Shown here: positions 10,540-16,060 of the stretch, in pieces
Layout: each line of letters opens with the position of its first letter
Numbering within the stretch: position 1 is the stretch's first letter
Assembly: GCF_004114375.1 (NCBI RefSeq)
Contig: NZ_CP034692.1
Span: 2,294,001 to 2,358,000, forward strand
Length of the DNA stretch: 64,000 nt
Source of the DNA: Halorubrum sp. BOL3-1
Lineage (GTDB): Archaea > Halobacteriota > Halobacteria > Halobacteriales > Haloferacaceae
Direction: 5' to 3'
Position numbers and translations under genes: made by a program
The notes under the pieces: generated by a model
What the model saw: only the letters and a program-made list of their open reading frames with translations
Databases searched by the model: none
Told to the model about the DNA's origin: nothing

Positions 10540-10612
10540 GGGCGCGTAGCTCAGCGGACAGAGCACTTGGTTCCGAACCAAGACGCCGCGGGTTCAAATC
10601 CCGTCGCGCCCG
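10540..10612 (+). tRNA. tRNA-Arg (anticodon CCG)
   Basis: A complete cloverleaf: acceptor GGGCGCG/CGCGCCC with discriminator G, anticodon stem CTTGG/CCAAG around TTCCGAA (anticodon CCG), T arm GCGGG TTCAAAT CCCGT. No intron and no encoded CCA. Its last 13 bases are the attachment site of the elements that follow. Confidence 0.95.
10600..10612 (+). other. att site 1 (3' end of tRNA-Arg)
   Basis: CCCGTCGCGCCCG here recurs exactly at 13756-13768, and without its last base at 16049-16060. It forms the boundaries of two tandem elements. Confidence 0.8.
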
Positions 10613-10870
10613 TATCGTTCTAATCGCATGACTGCGTTGGGGTAGATGCCGTAATAGTGCGAGGCGCGTGCTTTCGTTCGATAGGTGATCGTCCGCTGGT
10701 GTATCGGTGGGGTTCGCGTACATCCAAACTGGCGCAGGGAGAGAAAATCAATCGCCGATTGACTCATTCCTCTTGCGTGATCGGAGAGAATGCCTGAATT
10801 CTATCGAGATTCGACTATTGAATAGAGTGAGAGATTCTGTTGAAACTCTCTTCTTCAGAGATAAGACCAT

Positions 10871-10933
10871 ATGAAACAGCCGGCCACTGAAGACTGCGAA
10901 CTGACCGCCGAGAGTCTTGTCAGTTACAGATGA
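10871..10933 (+). CDS. 20-residue micro-ORF in left-end module, copy 1
   Basis: ATG to TGA encodes 20 residues ending TEDCELTAESLVSYR. The copy at 14027-14089 keeps the same frame, length, start and stop, and shares the core TEDCELTAES. It differs by both silent (CTG/CTA) and coding changes. The hairpin starts 11 bases after the stop. It could be a real micro-protein, a leader peptide or chance conservation inside a DNA or RNA element. No homolog is recognised. Confidence 0.35.
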   Translation: MKQPATEDCELTAESLVSYR

Positions 10934-10944
10934 TGTTCAAATCG

Positions 10945-10977
10945 CCGTGCAAGATACAGGGCGCGTATCTTACACGG
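10945..10977. other. 33-base hairpin in left-end module, copy 1
   Basis: Arms CCGTGCAAGATAC and GTATCTTACACGG pair over 13 positions with one C-A mismatch around the loop AGGGCGC. The second copy keeps the fold with altered bases. It may be an RNA structure, terminator or recombination site. Confidence 0.6.
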
Positions 10978-11064
10978 AGAGTTTGAGGAAGACCGCTTGT
11001 TCGGATCGGTCAATACAGGTGGAGCACATAGCGAGCACACCTCTCAAAGGGCTCTGGTAGCTTG

Positions 11065-11460
11065 TCACTCCGTCCCGTCGCGGATGATCATCACCTTGAC
11101 CCGGTTTACGCCGTCAAAATCGCGGAGTCGGTAGGTGAGGGTACGTACCTGCTCGGCTGGCCCCCGGCAAAACAGCGATTCGAGGCACCACTCTCCTTGG
11201 TGCGTATGACTCGTGTTGAGGATCGTGTCTTGATACTCGTGTTGGACTGCGTGGAGTTCCTGAATCACTTCGTGGTGGCGATAATCGAACGCGATGAGCG
11301 CAACGATTTCCCCACTTGTCGATTCGAGGCGGGAGTGTGACTCGGTGTACTCTAGCATCGCTTCTCGGACCGCCCGCGACCTATTTTCGAGACCCTGCTC
11401 TTGCCAGACTCGGTCGAACTCTTCGACGACTTTGTCTGGTATATTAAAACTCGTTCGCAT
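11065..11460 (-). CDS. nikR: nickel-responsive regulator NikR
   Basis: This 131-residue protein has an N-terminal ribbon-helix-helix domain (RTSFNIPDKVVEEFDRVWQE, then SRAVREAMLEY). An ACT-like metal-binding domain carries the NikR ligands: HHEVIQELHAVQHEYQDTIL, then SHTHQGEWCLESLFCRG (His-His-Cys set). NikR binds Ni(II) and then represses nickel transport genes. It is divergent from a nickel permease whose start is about 100 bases away, the classic arrangement. The ATG at 11460 starts exactly at the ribbon. It is cargo of element A. Confidence 0.93.
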   Translation of the reverse strand: MRTSFNIPDKVVEEFDRVWQEQGLENRSRAVREAMLEYTESHSRLESTSGEIVALIAFDYRHHEVIQELHAVQHEYQDTILNTSHTHQGEWCLESLFCRGPAEQVRTLTYRLRDFDGVNRVKVMIIRDGTE

Positions 11461-11500
11461 AGGTACTGACTCGTCGGGGTTCTACAAAATGGCCTCGTAT

Positions 11501-11511
11501 GACGATTCGTC
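11501..11511. promoter_or_regulatory. palindrome between nikR and permease, candidate NikR operator
   Basis: GACGA-T-TCGTC is a perfect 5+1+5 palindrome in the 103-base spacer between the divergent genes. Known NikR sites are longer dyads with half-sites resembling GTATGA. Here the left half extends as GTATGACGA, so the match is suggestive only. Confidence 0.4.
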
Positions 11512-11563
11512 CATTTCGGTATTAACAACTGTTTTTCACCTCGGTAGCAGAATTTCGATCAGG

Positions 11564-12418
11564 ATGTTACACGGTGAAGCACTCAGCCTTTTCCTCGGTA
11601 CAATCGCTCTCGGTGCCGTTCACGGCATCGAACCAGGTCATGGGTGGCCAATTGCTGCCTCATATGCGCTCGACCAGACAAACAAGTGGGTGTACGGGTT
11701 CGCGGCGAGTCTCATCATCGGCGTCGGTCACCTTATCAGCAGTATTGCGATGGTAGGGGTGTTCTTCTACGCGAAAGACTACTTCAATCTCACACAGGTC
11801 AACGAGCCGATAACGATACTCGGTGGGATCCAAATCGGCGGGCCAGTCAGTCTTGTTGCCGGTGGCTTGCTTATCGCGCTTGGAATTCGTGAATACTTCT
11901 ACGGGCACTCTCACGGCAGTCAGGGTGATGACAGCCACTCTGACCATCACAGCCAGAACCGCCACCATGATCTAGACGAGCATTCGAGCCATTCTCACGA
12001 GCAGGGCCATTCGCACGATCCTGATAGCGGCCATTCACACGACCACACCGTTGGACTGATCGCCCGTTTAAAAGGTTTTATTCCCTTCGTCGGTGGTCAC
12101 TCTCACTCGCACGATGCTCCCGAAGAAGTTGCTGATCGCGGCCTCCTCGGTATCGCGTGGTTCGCGTTCGTTCTCGGATTCGCCCATGAAGAGGAGTTCG
12201 AGATTATTGCGCTTTGCGCCGGTTCAAACCACTGTCTTGAACTGATGAGTGCGTACGCCCTCACCGTCATCGTGGGTATTGTCGGACTGACAATGTTGTT
12301 GATTGCAGGCTACCAGCATTCCGAGGAGAAAGTTGAGCAGTACACGCCGTACCTGCCAGCGTTTTCTGCAGCTGTCCTCATCATCATGGGATTTGGTTTC
12401 ATTACCGGAATCTTCTGA
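11564..12418 (+). CDS. NicO/RcnA-type nickel (cobalt) permease
   Basis: This 284-residue membrane protein has the hallmark HGIEPGHGWPIAASYAL in the first helix region, followed by helices FAASLIIGVGHLISSIAMVG and GPVSLVAGGLLIALGIREY. A long cytoplasmic or external loop is packed with histidines (HSHGSQGDDSHSDHHSQNRH, continuing to HSHDHTVG). The C-terminal helices are AWFAFVLGFAHEEEFEIIAL, LTVIVGIVGLTMLLIAGY and AAVLIIMGFGFITGIF. NicO/RcnA proteins move Ni/Co across the membrane; efflux versus uptake cannot be told from sequence. Divergence from nikR supports nickel as the substrate. The ATG at 11564 starts at the conserved region; a longer start at 11489 is possible. Confidence 0.88.
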   Translation: MLHGEALSLFLGTIALGAVHGIEPGHGWPIAASYALDQTNKWVYGFAASLIIGVGHLISSIAMVGVFFYAKDYFNLTQVNEPITILGGIQIGGPVSLVAGGLLIALGIREYFYGHSHGSQGDDSHSDHHSQNRHHDLDEHSSHSHEQGHSHDPDSGHSHDHTVGLIARLKGFIPFVGGHSHSHDAPEEVADRGLLGIAWFAFVLGFAHEEEFEIIALCAGSNHCLELMSAYALTVIVGIVGLTMLLIAGYQHSEEKVEQYTPYLPAFSAAVLIIMGFGFITGIF

Positions 12419-12516
12419 GTTCTCTGTTCAATAAGCAGTCTTCATCGACTGACTATTTCAGACGAGAACATCTCTGAAGAATAGGATTTCAACAGAGCCA
12501 TATTTTTGGCTTTGTT

Positions 12517-12960
12517 GGATCAACTGATTCCTCGGAGTACTCGGCGTGCTCCTCGTGGGCAGTCCCTATTCACCGACGCTGTTGAGTGCGCTGTTCAGCT
12601 CAAATAGCTCGCGGACGACGTCGCTGTCCGCGACCCGGTACCGACGCGGTGACGTGTCCGGAACCCCCTCGATGAGTTCGACCTCACACAAGAGGTCGGT
12701 GTAGTTGCCGACGGTCTGGCGCGTTACGCCGGCGTGTTCTGCGAGCTCGGTCTTGTTGAACTCGCGGTTCGGCGGGAGATCGAGTAACGCGTCTACGAGA
12801 ATCGGAATCGCGTCGTGCTGTGTGAGGTAGAGCCACCCGCTCGGGTGCTCTTTCCGGAGTTCCTTCTTCGCCCCGCGGTCGTCCGCGTGCTCCATATCAC
12901 TCGTGTAGAGAGTCCGCCTGTGTGTATAAGTACACCCACTAGCGTTAACAGCCAGTAACG
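12517..12960. repeat. regulator block repeated in both elements, copy A
   Basis: About 440 bases holding the winged-helix gene and its upstream operator-like repeats are close to identical to about 15073-15520 in element B. The proteins differ at only two or three residues. Confidence 0.8.
12566..12895 (-). CDS. winged-helix transcriptional regulator, element A copy
   Basis: The 109-residue protein has a helix-turn-helix in NKTELAEHAGVTRQTVGNYT, followed by the wing LIEGVPDTSPRRYRVADSD. The N-terminus is acidic/basic mixed (MEHADDRGAKKELRKEHPSG). It is nearly identical to 15122-15451. Such small regulators are common on haloarchaeal plasmids and integrated elements; the target is unknown. 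Direct repeats related to TTAACAG about 50 bases upstream of both copies suggest self-regulation. The ATG at 12895 is the only start close to the conserved segment. Confidence 0.75.
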   Translation of the reverse strand: MEHADDRGAKKELRKEHPSGWLYLTQHDAIPILVDALLDLPPNREFNKTELAEHAGVTRQTVGNYTDLLCEVELIEGVPDTSPRRYRVADSDVVRELFELNSALNSVGE

Positions 12961-12963
12961 GTG

Positions 12964-13104
12964 TTATTCGTGTTCGAGGGCGTCGTAGACATCTCGATTC
13001 GACTCCCGGTCGTCCGCCGCGACCCGCCGAATCAGCTCCCGCCGGATATCCTCCATCACGTCGTCGAGCGGTGACGCCGTTTTTGATCCCTCTTCAGTGG
13101 CCAT
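12964..13104 (-). CDS. 46-residue partner of Doc toxin, candidate antitoxin
   Basis: This short acidic protein (MATEEGSKTASPLDDVMEDI, then RRELIRRVAADDRESNRDVY) lies 25 bases downstream of the Doc gene on the same strand. Its size, charge and position suit the antitoxin of a Fic/Doc pair, although Phd/VbhA-type antitoxins are usually encoded upstream of the toxin. No Phd fold or (S/T)xxxE(G/N) inhibitory motif is obvious. The function is inference from context. Confidence 0.55.
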   Translation of the reverse strand: MATEEGSKTASPLDDVMEDIRRELIRRVAADDRESNRDVYDALEHE

Positions 13105-13129
13105 GACTGTACGAACGCGTCGAACGCCG

Positions 13130-13630
13130 TTAATCGTTCGGGTCCGACGAATCGCCGGTCAACTCCGATAGCCCGTACCGGACGAGTTCGTCTCGCCACG
13201 CTTCGATCTCACCGGCCAGATCGAGTGCTTCGGTGTGAGATTGGAGATAGTCAGTGGTGTCCTCCTCATCGACGGCCGCTTCGTCGGTGCCGAACCCTTT
13301 CAGTATCGCCCTCGCTTCGCCGTCGTACTCGAACCGATACCCGTTGAGGAAGTAGAAGACGACCGTCACGTTGAGCGCGGTGCGTTTGTTCGCGTCGACG
13401 AAGGGGTGATTGGCAACGAGGAGCCGGAAGAGGTGATACGCCTTCTCGTGGACGGTTTCCGGCGCTGAGCCGAAGCTCCCCTCTTCGATGTAGTTCAGTG
13501 CGAACTCGATGTCACCGCGGTTCCGAACACCGGCGGGAGTATCGGGGTACTCCGCGACGATGTCGTCGTGGATAGTGACGACGTCTTCGACAGACGGGTA
13601 CCACAACGAATCGGCCATTCGCTCCGGCAT
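13130..13630 (-). CDS. doc: Fic/Doc-family toxin
   Basis: The protein has 166 residues. The catalytic loop HPFVDANKRTALN lies at residues 75-87. Ala-Asn-Lys-Arg replaces the Gly-Asn-x-Arg of AMP-transferring Fic proteins, as in phage P1 Doc (HxFxDANKRTA), which phosphorylates EF-Tu and stops translation. The N-terminus contains the family pattern LWYPSVEDVVTIHDDIVAEY. The ATG at 13630 is used; a second at 13618 is equally plausible. A 46-residue gene follows it and may be the antitoxin. It probably stabilises element A. Confidence 0.87.
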   Translation of the reverse strand: MPERMADSLWYPSVEDVVTIHDDIVAEYPDTPAGVRNRGDIEFALNYIEEGSFGSAPETVHEKAYHLFRLLVANHPFVDANKRTALNVTVVFYFLNGYRFEYDGEARAILKGFGTDEAAVDEEDTTDYLQSHTEALDLAGEIEAWRDELVRYGLSELTGDSSDPND

Positions 13631-13713
13631 CGGTGCTGCACCGGTGTAGATTTTGTCATAGCTGACTGAACGATGCCAGAAATCACCGTTTTAGTGACGT
13701 CGAATTCGGCCGC

Positions 13714-13767
13714 CTCACGCCTCAAAGGTGTAGTCGTTCGACAGTCGATGTAGCGCCCGTCGCGCCC
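13714..13767 (+). repeat. 54-base right end, element A
   Basis: It runs from CTCACGCCTCAAAGG to the att core GCGCCCGTCGCGCCC and matches 16007-16060 at 52 of 54 positions. The stretch 13631-13713 before it holds no gene. Confidence 0.8.
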
Positions 13768-13768
13768 G
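13756..13768 (+). other. att site 2, junction of the two elements
   Basis: An exact copy of the last 13 bases of tRNA-Arg (CCCGTCGCGCCCG). It is shared as the right boundary of element A and the left boundary of element B. Confidence 0.8.
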
Positions 13769-14026
13769 TATCGTTCTAATCGCATGACTGCGTTGGGGTA
13801 GGTGCCGTAATAGTGCGAGGCGCGTGCTTTCGTTCGATAGGTGATCGTCCGCTGGTGTATCGGTGGGGTTCGCGTACATCCAAACTGGCGCAGAGAGAGA
13901 AAATCAACCGCCGATTGACTCATCCTTCTCACTTGATTGGAGAGACTACTTGACTTCCATCAAGATTCGACTATACAGTAGAGAGTGCGATTCTGTTGTG
14001 ACTCTCTTGTTCAGAAATAAGACCAT

Positions 14027-14089
14027 ATGACACACTCGGTCACTGAAGACTGCGAACTAACCGCCGAGAGTCTTACCAGTTACAGATGA
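14027..14089 (+). CDS. 20-residue micro-ORF in left-end module, copy 2
   Basis: It keeps start, stop, frame and length relative to 10871-10933 and shares the core TEDCELTAES. The differences sit at residues 2-5 and at 17. The conservation of the frame could reflect translation or simply recent duplication. Confidence 0.35.
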   Translation: MTHSVTEDCELTAESLTSYR

Positions 14090-14100
14090 TGTTCAAATCG

Positions 14101-14133
14101 CCGTGTAAGATGTAGGGCGCGAGTCTTGTACGG
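14101..14133. other. 33-base hairpin in left-end module, copy 2
   Basis: CCGTGTAAGA pairs with TCTTGTACGG over ten positions as RNA (two G-U). At the positions where the two copies differ the outer stem pairing is kept, and the loop AGGGCGC is identical. Confidence 0.6.
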
Positions 14134-14141
14134 CAATTCGC

Positions 14142-14354
14142 TCAATCGAGATATCCTAATTGATGGAGCGACTCAAGCGTTTCATCATCTATATCGGCTT
14201 TTTCGAGTGCTTCTTGTCCCGCTGTATATTGTTCTTCGATGGCGACTAACGATTGACGTGCTGTGCGTATCTTGAATGTCAGACCAGAATCTGTCATTTC
14301 CTCTTGAACACTCTCAAGCATGGTGTCTATGTGTTCGAACAGGTCTTCTTCCAT
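14142..14354 (-). CDS. 70-residue helical hypothetical protein
   Basis: A small acidic protein (MEEDLFEHIDTMLESVQEEM, then TARQSLVAIEEQYTAGQEAL) of predicted helical, coiled-coil character ending SLHQLGYLD. The ATG at 14354 was chosen because the upstream frame is not coding in character. No family is recognised. It is cargo of element B, immediately after the left-end module; such a position often holds regulatory or stability genes, but nothing in the sequence proves this. Confidence 0.6.
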   Translation of the reverse strand: MEEDLFEHIDTMLESVQEEMTDSGLTFKIRTARQSLVAIEEQYTAGQEALEKADIDDETLESLHQLGYLD

Positions 14355-14537
14355 ACGTGTATGTTGAAACGCTCGATGATTTAATACTACGATATTTCCT
14401 ACTATCAGGGAGTACCGACTTGAGATATGTCTCCACGCTGTACATTCTTTTCGGCGGCTACTGGTAAATGCTGTATTCCGCCTCTTAGGGCGCATATGTA
14501 GGACCAGTCCGTGCTGACCAAGTTTTATTTTTGTGAC

Positions 14538-14549
14538 AAAATTTAAATG
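14538..14549 (+). promoter_or_regulatory. TATA-like box for the pentad-repeat protein
   Basis: AAAATTTAAATG lies about 25-30 bases before the ATG at 14572, fitting a leaderless promoter. The surrounding 200 bases are AT-rich for this genome and contain no other gene. Confidence 0.5.
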
Positions 14550-14571
14550 AACACCCTCTGAATCGTGACGT

Positions 14572-14910
14572 ATGGATATAGACTGGCAAAACTCAGGTGG
14601 CATCATTGCGCTTGGTTTGTTGGGGACTGCGCTGGTGTTGACACTGGCCGGTATCGAAACTGTGGCAGGATACGAGGTGCTTGCTGCCGGACAATCGGCC
14701 TTTGGATTCCTCGCTGCAGGGAATTTTAGTCTTGGTGTGCTCTCCGCGGGCATCTTTTCAGTCGGAATCTTCTCGGTAGGAGTTTTCTCTGTCGGGATTT
14801 TCTCAGTCGGGATCTTCGCTGTTGGCCCATTTGCATTCGGGACCTACGCCGTCGGATTCTACGCATCACAACAGTATATCGCCTCTTCAGAAACGACAGC
14901 TGAAAAATAA
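14572..14910 (+). CDS. glycine-pentad repeat protein (112 residues)
   Basis: After a hydrophobic N-terminal helix (IIALGLLGTALVLTLAGIET), glycine occurs at exactly every fifth residue from 40 to 95 (twelve pentads). The consensus is x-[FY]-[SA]-x-G (IFSVG IFSVG VFSVG IFAVG PFAFG TYAVG). A short polar tail closes the protein. The strict five-residue period recalls pentapeptide-repeat beta-helices, but the usual A(D/N)Lxx pattern is absent and the repeat surface is wholly non-polar, so it may lie in or on the membrane. The function is unknown. Confidence 0.7.
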   Translation: MDIDWQNSGGIIALGLLGTALVLTLAGIETVAGYEVLAAGQSAFGFLAAGNFSLGVLSAGIFSVGIFSVGVFSVGIFSVGIFAVGPFAFGTYAVGFYASQQYIASSETTAEK

Positions 14911-15072
14911 TCAGTGCTGGCTTCACCCTCTATATCTTGTACGGGTTTCTTACCAGTTAGTCGATGGTTCGTAGATTCCCACGTTACGTCGCTCACCTGT
15001 ATTGAGCGCGGTTGGGTCTGACTGTAGCACCAACTGATGGATTTCGATACTTCGCTATGTTCTGTAACGGGT

Positions 15073-15520
15073 GGATCAACGGATTCCTCGTAGTACTCGG
15101 CGTGCTCCTTGCGGGCAGTCGCTATTCCCCGACGCTGTTAAGCGCGCTGTTCAGCTTGAAGAGCTCGCGGACGACATCGCTGTCCGCGACCCGGTACCGA
15201 CGCGGTGACGTGTCCGGAACCTCCTCGATGAGTTCGACCTCACACAAGAGGTCGGTGTAGTTGCCGACGGTCTGCCGTGTTACGCCGGCGTGTTCTGCGA
15301 GCTCGGTCTTGTTGAACTCGCGGTTCGGCGGGAGATCGAGCAACGCGTCTACGAGGATCGGAATCGCGTCGTGTTGGGTGAGGTAGAGCCACCCGCTCGG
15401 GTGCTCTTTCCGGAGTTCTTTCTTTGCCCCGCGGTCGTCCGCGTGCTCCATACTGCTCATACGGAGAAACATCATCTGGGCGTATATAACTGTTTCCGCT
15501 ACTGTTAACAGCCATTAACA
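15073..15520. repeat. regulator block repeated in both elements, copy B
   Basis: The counterpart of 12517-12960, containing the second regulator gene and upstream TTAACAG repeats. The stretch 14911-15072 before it holds no gene. Confidence 0.8.
15122..15451 (-). CDS. winged-helix transcriptional regulator, element B copy
   Basis: The 109-residue near-twin of 12566-12895, with the same helix-turn-helix NKTELAEHAGVTRQTVGNYT. The differences (LIEEVPDT for LIEGVPDT, LFKLNSA for LFELNSA) are conservative. It is divergent from the 104-residue gene at 15554, with a shared spacer holding TATA elements for both directions and two TTAACAG direct repeats. This suggests it controls both itself and its neighbour. 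The start could be three codons further up (MSSMEH). Confidence 0.75.
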   Translation of the reverse strand: MEHADDRGAKKELRKEHPSGWLYLTQHDAIPILVDALLDLPPNREFNKTELAEHAGVTRQTVGNYTDLLCEVELIEEVPDTSPRRYRVADSDVVRELFKLNSALNSVGE

Positions 15521-15522
15521 GC
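15502..15522. promoter_or_regulatory. TTAACAG direct repeats, candidate operator of the element regulator
   Basis: TTAACAG occurs twice ten bases apart (TTAACAGCCATTAACAG) between the divergent TATA boxes at about 15484 (minus) and 15533 (plus). The element A copy has TTAACAGCCAGTAACG at the same place. Confidence 0.45.
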
Positions 15523-15553
15523 ATTTATATACAAGTGAATTTATTCCGGCGAT

Positions 15554-15868
15554 ATGGAGAAGCCGTCGGTGAAGTGTGCCCTCTTGGCGACGATGATAGC
15601 GAAGCACAAGTGGGGAACACCGATCACCGAGGATGCCCTTCTCAATCTCTCGGCGATCGACGGCGACTACCCGACTGCGCGTGACGTCTATGCGAACCTT
15701 CGACGCGAACCCTACATCACCCACCGCGGAAACCGCGGTATCGAACTCAACAAGAGTCGCTTCGACGAACTTGCCGATGTTCTCTACCACGAGTGTGGCT
15801 GGGAAGCGTGGGAGATCGACAGTCGGCTGAAACACTACGAGGGTATCGACGAGCACGATTGGAAGTGA
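15554..15868 (+). CDS. hypothetical protein of 104 residues, element B cargo
   Basis: It begins MEKPSVKCALLATMIAKHKW and ends HYEGIDEHDWK. The content is mixed alpha with two conserved-looking stretches (DYPTARDVYANLRREPYITH and ELADVLYHECGWEAWEIDS). It is preceded by TTTATATAC at 15533-15541. No family is recognised. It is divergent from the winged-helix gene with a shared operator region, so it is probably regulated by it. A DNA-binding or toxin role would be a guess. Confidence 0.65.
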   Translation: MEKPSVKCALLATMIAKHKWGTPITEDALLNLSAIDGDYPTARDVYANLRREPYITHRGNRGIELNKSRFDELADVLYHECGWEAWEIDSRLKHYEGIDEHDWK

Positions 15869-16006
15869 GCCCCTGATGCTGAACGATTCGGTCCTACTGA
15901 CGTGGGGAGGTCCGATGTGATGTCTCTGTAGTTGAGTTTGGATGAATAGACAAAATCTAATAAATCTGTTAAGAACATCCGTCTTGAGACGGCCGATTTT
16001 AGGTGT

Positions 16007-16060
16007 CTCACGCCTCAAAGGTCTAGTCGTTCGACAGTCGACGTAGCGCCCGTCGCGCCC
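16007..16060 (+). repeat. 54-base right end, element B
   Basis: It matches 13714-13767 at 52 of 54 positions. The spacer 15869-16006 before it and the stretch 16061-16245 after it hold no recognisable gene. Confidence 0.8.
16049..16060 (+). other. att site 3, outer right boundary
   Basis: CCCGTCGCGCCC equals the first 12 bases of att sites 1 and 2. The next base differs, marking the return to chromosomal sequence. Confidence 0.75.

What the first reader, a model, noticed from the sequence alone, without database searches (positions are those of the whole stretch)
10600..10977. Conserved left-end module with a micro-ORF followed by a hairpin
The module (10600-10977 and 13756-14133) has equal length in both copies. 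It contains a 20-codon ORF with identical start, stop and core TEDCELTAES, and eleven bases later a 33-base hairpin with invariant loop AGGGCGC. Sequence differences in the stem mostly keep pairing (G-C to G-U, T-A retained). That pattern suggests selection on an RNA or cruciform rather than on simple sequence. It could be a small RNA, an attenuator-type leader peptide, or the recognition site of the missing recombinase.
Basis: partly seen in the sequence, partly recalled or inferred. Interest (0 to 1): 0.75.

Follow-up and report, generated by a model that had tools for sequence, protein, structure and literature searches.

The report
Transposon end inside tRNA-linked archaeal cassette
The repeated 378-base block is the left end of two gene cassettes lined up behind a tRNA gene in a salt-loving archaeon, with a worn end of a common cargo-carrying transposon inside it, so the tiny ORF is an accident and the hairpin belongs to a dispersed mobile repeat.

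Summary
In detail: 378 ungapped bases, 339 identical, both micro-ORFs and both hairpins present. The block is composite. Bases 10600-10612 are the 3' end of tRNA-Arg(CCG), the att repeat. Bases 10613 to about 10828 are the left end of an integrase-less cassette family at this tRNA, matched in 21 of 39 congeners and tandem in several. Bases 10833 to about 10905 are a worn end of a transposon family with inverted repeat GGCTCTGTTGAAATCC: 15 of 80 facing pairs carry an 8-bp target duplication, against 1 in 320 control comparisons. Autonomous members encode an IS5-family transposase; others carry unrelated cargo. Bases 10894-10977 are a dispersed hairpin module, absent from the autonomous copies checked. 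The micro-ORF fails: four of 20 aligned copies have ATG there, only the two window copies keep the whole ORF, and pN/pS is 0.96. The inverted repeat is real (29 of 60 copies pair at 9 or more of 11 positions, controls 0 of 300) but shows no covariation beyond shuffles. Homology between the window copies ends at the hairpin, where cargo changes. The hairpin's function is unsettled. Moderate interest.

The parts
10540..10612 (+). tRNA-Arg (CCG); its 3' end CCCGTCGCGCCCG (10600-10612) is the att repeat
   Evidence: ARAGORN, Rfam RF00005; repeat at each cassette junction
10613..10832 (+). left end (LE) of cassette 1; core 10613-10762, weaker similarity to about 10828
   Evidence: matches in 21 of 39 congeners; tandem in several genomes
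10833..10905 (+). worn type-1 end (A) of the IS5-type transposon family, TIR decayed to GATTCTGTTGAAA
   Evidence: family alignment and nhmmer; TIR and 8-bp TSD family
10871..10933 (+). micro-ORF of the finding: chance ORF
   Evidence: start codon and reading constraint absent in other copies
10894..10977 (+). hairpin module B; stem-loop core 10947-10975
11008..11018 (+). GGTCAATACAG boundary oligonucleotide about 33 nt after the hairpin
   Evidence: GGTCARTACAG: 10 sites in the genome, 0 in reversed control
11065..11460 (-). cargo gene: NikR-like regulator
   Evidence: PF08753
11564..12418 (+). cargo gene: NicO-like Ni/Co transporter with His-rich loop (start codon inferred)
   Evidence: PF03824, below gathering score
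12428..12499 (-). second type-1 transposon end, facing left, TIR GGCTCTGTTGAAATCC intact
12566..12895 (-). small winged-helix-like regulator gene, duplicated at 15122-15475
   Evidence: repeat D1; only a sub-threshold DUF4143 match; function read from the sequence
13130..13630 (-). Fic/Doc-family protein, likely toxin of a toxin-antitoxin pair
   Evidence: PF02661
13714..13768 (+). right end (RE) of cassette 1 plus att repeat; abuts LE of cassette 2
13769..13988 (+). LE of cassette 2 (core 98% identical to LE 1)
13989..14133 (+). worn type-1 end plus hairpin module of cassette 2 (hairpin core 14103-14131)
14990..15057 (-). probable decayed type-2 end at the far side of the cargo in cassette 2
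   Evidence: CGCTCAATACAG context; resemblance read by eye, TIR largely lost; no significant blastn hit
16007..16060 (+). RE of cassette 2 plus att repeat, end of the island

Best explanation
The module is the left boundary of a tRNA-Arg(CCG)-linked, integrase-less cassette, present twice in tandem, with the remains of one end of a passenger-carrying IS5-type transposon inside it. Shown: the att repeat sits at the tRNA end and at both cassette ends; the left end is shared by many congeners, in several of them in tandem; the part from 10833 belongs to a dispersed family of ends with TIR GGCTCTGTTGAAATCC and 8-bp target duplications, whose autonomous members encode an IS5-family transposase and whose non-autonomous members carry unrelated genes; similarity between the two window copies stops at the hairpin, beyond which the cargo differs. 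Inferred: an ancestral transposon entered a cassette near base 216 of its left end (the same junction is seen in four other species); the cassette was duplicated in tandem; the genes between the ends were then exchanged, leaving the shared left end, transposon end and hairpin as the visible repeat. The micro-ORF is a chance reading frame. The hairpin is a DNA module carried next to the type-1 end of many non-autonomous copies; the most likely role (weakly supported) is that of flanking DNA of the cargo that marks the limit of homology when cargo is swapped.
For: Own genome: 16 matches to the module, 14 of them confined to its tail; 33 sites for GGCTCTGTTGAAATCCTC with up to 3 mismatches against 1 in the reversed control. 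TSDs: 15 of 80 facing TIR pairs match in at least 7 of 8 flanking bases, 12 of them exactly (e.g. AACTCACT, AGCTATTT, CAAAAAGC, GATTTTCT, ACTATTTC); 1 match in 320 displaced comparisons. Autonomous elements with transposase: L091, L141, L144, L149, L151, L157; transposase is NF033579 transpos_IS5_2, 219.6 bits against cut-off 140, and PF01609. TSD-bounded elements whose type-1 end carries the full A+B composite: L012, L027 and L031 exactly, L009 with one mismatch. Left end: 21 of 39 congeners, after CCCGTCGCGCCCG or a close variant in the well-covered cases; tandem LE-RE-LE in L190, L191, L192, L194 and in part L195. Transposon end joined at the same point of the left end in L171-L174. Micro-ORF.
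Against: Neither window copy has an intact TIR, a matching TSD or a clear partner end, so membership of these two copies rests on homology. The end at 12499 faces the module but is also type 1, so 10833-12499 is not a regular transposon unit. No empty site of the window copies was shown. The hairpin module also occurs without the transposon end (18 B-only against 28 A+B copies), and the autonomous elements checked lack it, so its origin is separate and unexplained. A tendency of the inner gene to read towards the module is not significant (18 against 8, p 0.076).
Confidence: 0.85

Rival explanations
1. Small RNA or attenuator: the module is transcribed, the peptide is a leader and the hairpin a regulatory or terminator structure.
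For: Inverted repeat kept in many copies: mean 8.3 of 11 positions pair against 3.96 in displaced controls. A few both-side changes (7 cells in 34 hairpins).
Against: No covariation beyond shuffles. Sixteen of 20 copies lack ATG at that site and pN/pS is 0.96. No Rfam family except the tRNA. The NikR-like gene in copy 1 lies on the opposite strand, so the ORF and hairpin do not lead into it.
Confidence: 0.05
2. The hairpin is a site-specific recombination site (11-bp inverted arms around a 7-bp core) at which cargo is exchanged.
For: Architecture 11-7-11; core A-NN-GCGC strongly conserved while right arms occur as CTTGCAC, CGGTCAC or CAGCAC types (32, 11 and 6 of 60); homology between the window copies ends at the hairpin. 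Tyrosine recombinase genes lie within about 3 kb outside the cassette array in G006 and G015.
Against: No recombinase is tied to the hairpin; right arms change without a matching change of the left arm; homologous recombination at conserved ends would give the same boundary.
Confidence: 0.1
3. PATE: a transposase-free palindrome-associated element derived from an IS200/IS605 transposon, as described in Haloquadratum (PMC3119063).
For: Near-terminal palindromes, short non-coding copies, a conserved oligonucleotide after a variable stretch.
Against: The family has terminal inverted repeats and 8-bp TSDs, both excluded by the PATE definition; of 15 TnpB genes and one Y1 transposase gene in the genome only two TnpB genes lie near copies, one of them inserted into a copy.
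Confidence: 0.05

Closest known systems
Mobile insertion cassettes (MICs): IS ends bounding passenger genes without transposase, mobilised in trans
   Same: TIRs, TSDs, cargo genes, no transposase in many copies; cognate transposase present elsewhere in the genus
   Different: Haloarchaeal IS5-type; asymmetric type-1 and type-2 subterminal regions; extra hairpin module in many copies; cargo diverse
IS5-family insertion sequences (that the ISH1 group has an 8-bp TSD is recalled from memory)
   Same: Transposase matches NCBIfam transpos_IS5_2 above cut-off; 8-bp TSD
   Different: Window copies are worn ends without transposase
CIME-type or tandem tRNA-integrated elements
   Same: att repeats from a tRNA 3' end, tandem accretion, no integrase inside the unit
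   Different: Units of only about 1-3 kb with fixed left and right ends, several with a toxin-antitoxin-like gene; mobilisation not shown
PATEs and SMRs of Haloquadratum walsbyi (PMC3119063)
   Same: Short dispersed non-coding mobile repeats with palindromes in a haloarchaeon
   Different: PATEs lack TIR and TSD

Membership tests
Mobile insertion cassette / non-autonomous IS5-type transposon (the family) | Terminal inverted repeats at both ends | tested here: met
   GGCTCTGTTGAAATCC-like repeats at both ends of 15 TSD-supported elements
Mobile insertion cassette / non-autonomous IS5-type transposon (the family) | Target-site duplication of fixed length | tested here: met
   8 bp; 15 of 80 pairs against 1 of 320 control comparisons
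Mobile insertion cassette / non-autonomous IS5-type transposon (the family) | Autonomous relative with a transposase and the same ends | tested here: met
   L091, L141, L149, L157 among others
Mobile insertion cassette / non-autonomous IS5-type transposon (the two window copies) | Intact TIR, partner end and TSD | tested here: not met
   TIR reads GATTCTG; no partner with matching flank: worn ends, not complete elements
CIME-like tRNA cassette | Flanking att direct repeats from a tRNA 3' end | tested here: met
   CCCGTCGCGCCC at 10600, 13756, 16049
CIME-like tRNA cassette | Excision or transfer driven in trans by a related integrative element | not testable with these tools
   Tyrosine recombinase genes lie beside the arrays in G006 and G015; no activity data
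PATE (IS200/IS605-derived) | No terminal inverted repeats and no target duplication | tested here: not met
   Both are present in the family
Leader peptide / attenuator | Conserved start codon and reading frame under purifying selection | tested here: not met
   ATG in 4 of 20 copies, full ORF only in the two window copies; pN/pS 0.96
Structured RNA | Covarying base pairs | tested here: not met
   Observed values reached in 69-240 of 500 shuffles and 81-100 of 500; high conservation limits the power
Tyrosine-recombinase core site | Strand exchange at the core by a cognate recombinase | not testable with these tools
   Only the 11-7-11 layout was seen

The most novel reading that the evidence does not exclude
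The hairpin (11-7-11 with a conserved A-NN-GCGC core) is a recombination site at which genes are exchanged between fixed transposon ends, giving haloarchaea a cassette-swapping system unlike integrons.
Probability: 0.08. Interest if true: 0.75.

Novelty: new member of a known kind. Interest (0 to 1): 0.4.

Why it matters
It removes a candidate small RNA and leader peptide and replaces them with a testable account. It also points to a widespread haloarchaeal transposon family that moves ordinary genes (a CPBP-type protease, a RidA-like protein, an Mrr-like nuclease and others, named here from their sequence) without carrying its own transposase, and to integrase-less tandem cassettes at one tRNA gene across a genus; both would be useful for understanding gene flow in haloarchaea.

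Tried and rejected
IS200/IS605 (PATE) origin: TnpB and Y1 transposase genes are not associated with copies, and TIR plus TSD contradict it. TnpB guide-RNA remnant: the one TnpB element overlapping a copy is inserted into it. IS110 bridge RNA: one copy lies near an IS110 gene on a plasmid, no pattern. RNAalifold on 20 and 23 copies gave almost no consensus structure. Virus or phage origin: no match in phage records, and none for the hairpin pattern in viral contigs. Literature search for the terminal sequence found nothing relevant. A regular transposon unit bounded by 10833 and 12499 was considered and dropped because both ends are type 1 and the flanks do not match.

Full report
What was reported is there. 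The two copies align without gaps over 378 bases with 339 identities, the two 20-codon ORFs and the two hairpins exist, and each hairpin forms 10 of 11 RNA-type pairs. Conservation is uneven, however: 147/150 next to the tRNA, 52/70 in the next stretch, 60/68 and 67/77 in the ORF and hairpin part, and 2/10 right after the hairpin. The ORF-hairpin part is therefore not the best conserved part, and the module ends abruptly at the hairpin.

The first bases are the 3' end of tRNA-Arg(CCG). The same CCCGTCGCGCCC recurs at 13756 and 16049. The stretch 10613-10835 finds matches in 21 of 39 genomes of the genus, and together with a 55-base right end it bounds units that abut each other in the window and in other species. 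The window thus holds two tandem cassettes, 10600-13768 and 13756-16060, with no recombinase found inside. In two other species tyrosine recombinase genes lie within about 3 kb outside the array. The organism appears to be a Halorubrum-like haloarchaeon; this is judged from named hits, since the genome itself is unnamed.

The tail of the module is a dispersed repeat: 16 matches in the genome, and matches in 38 of 59 genomes searched next. Aligned copies start at GGCTCTGTTGAAATCC. The 18-base pattern occurs 33 times in the genome against once for the reversed control. Facing pairs were tested for target duplications: 15 of 80 distinct pairs match in at least 7 of 8 bases, 12 exactly, while displaced flanks gave 1 match in 320 comparisons (first seen). 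Six of these elements carry a 273-aa transposase; its representative matches NCBIfam transpos_IS5_2 above its cut-off and the Pfam DDE_Tnp_1 domain. The others carry unrelated genes. Two kinds of end occur: type 1, the kind in the module, and type 2. In the autonomous elements checked the type-1 homology stops at or before model position 96, before the hairpin.

The hairpin module therefore is an addition. It occurs after a type-1 end in 28 distinct copies, without it in 18, and 46 type-1 ends lack it. It is found in several haloarchaeal genera. TSD-bounded elements with the full composite end exist (L012, L027, L031; L009 with one mismatch). In the window the type-1 ends are worn (GATTCTG instead of GGCTCTG) and no partner end with matching flank was found. 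Four other species have a type-1 end at the same point of the left end, without the hairpin and with other sequence behind it. The simplest history is a transposon insertion into a cassette, gain of the hairpin, tandem duplication, and replacement of cargo: NikR and NicO-like genes in cassette 1, two small genes in cassette 2. This order is inferred.

The micro-ORF was tested on the 20 aligned copies. Four have ATG at the site and one more has GTG; only the two window copies keep the full ORF to the stop. Most others have CTG. Third codon positions are the best conserved, and pN/pS is 0.96, within the range of the other frames (0.64-1.15). Indels are rare throughout the repeat, so the shared frame says little. 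Between the window copies six codons differ, five of them non-synonymously.

The hairpin was tested on copies found by their left half only. Right arms pair with left arms far above displaced controls (mean 8.3 against 3.96 of 11; 29 of 60 at 9 or more against 0 of 300), so the inverted repeat is a real property. But in 48 copies, and in 34 with the standard arm, pair counts and double changes are not clearly higher than in column shuffles, and 17 of 60 copies have another recognisable right arm (CGGTCAC or CAGCAC types; 11 more fit none), while the left arm keeps its usual form in most of them. Selection on an RNA stem is thus not shown; the high conservation limits the power of this test. 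The arm exchange and the 11-7-11 layout leave room for a protein-binding or recombination site, which I rate at about one in ten.

Compared with what is known, the family fits mobile insertion cassettes of an IS5-type element; PATEs of Haloquadratum (PMC3119063) are excluded by TIR and TSD. No published description of this family was found in the papers searched, which cover open-licence papers only. The finding as written is mostly explained; the transposon family and the cassette array are the parts of interest.

Noticed in passing
window 10600-16060; L190, L191, L192, L194, L195: Tandem integrase-less cassettes with fixed left and right ends at tRNA-Arg(CCG); in the window they carry a Fic/Doc-type gene and a duplicated small regulator gene; related ends in over half of the congeners searched.
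   Followed up: partly
L017 5065-6648: A TnpB-encoding element is inserted inside a type-1 transposon end, splitting its palindrome.
   Followed up: partly
window 11008-11018; L012, L015, L072, L077 and others: GGTCARTACAG occurs 10 times in the genome and not in the reversed control; it often marks the border between a transposon end or hairpin module and the cargo.
   Followed up: partly
window 12482-12523: Two TIR-like sequences (CAACAGAGCC and GGCTTTGTTG) face away from each other eight bases apart, as if two elements met end to end.
   Followed up: no
L103 1501-1861: A 361-bp element bounded by type-2 and type-1 ends carries a single small membrane-protein-like ORF, but its flanks do not match as a TSD.
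   Followed up: no
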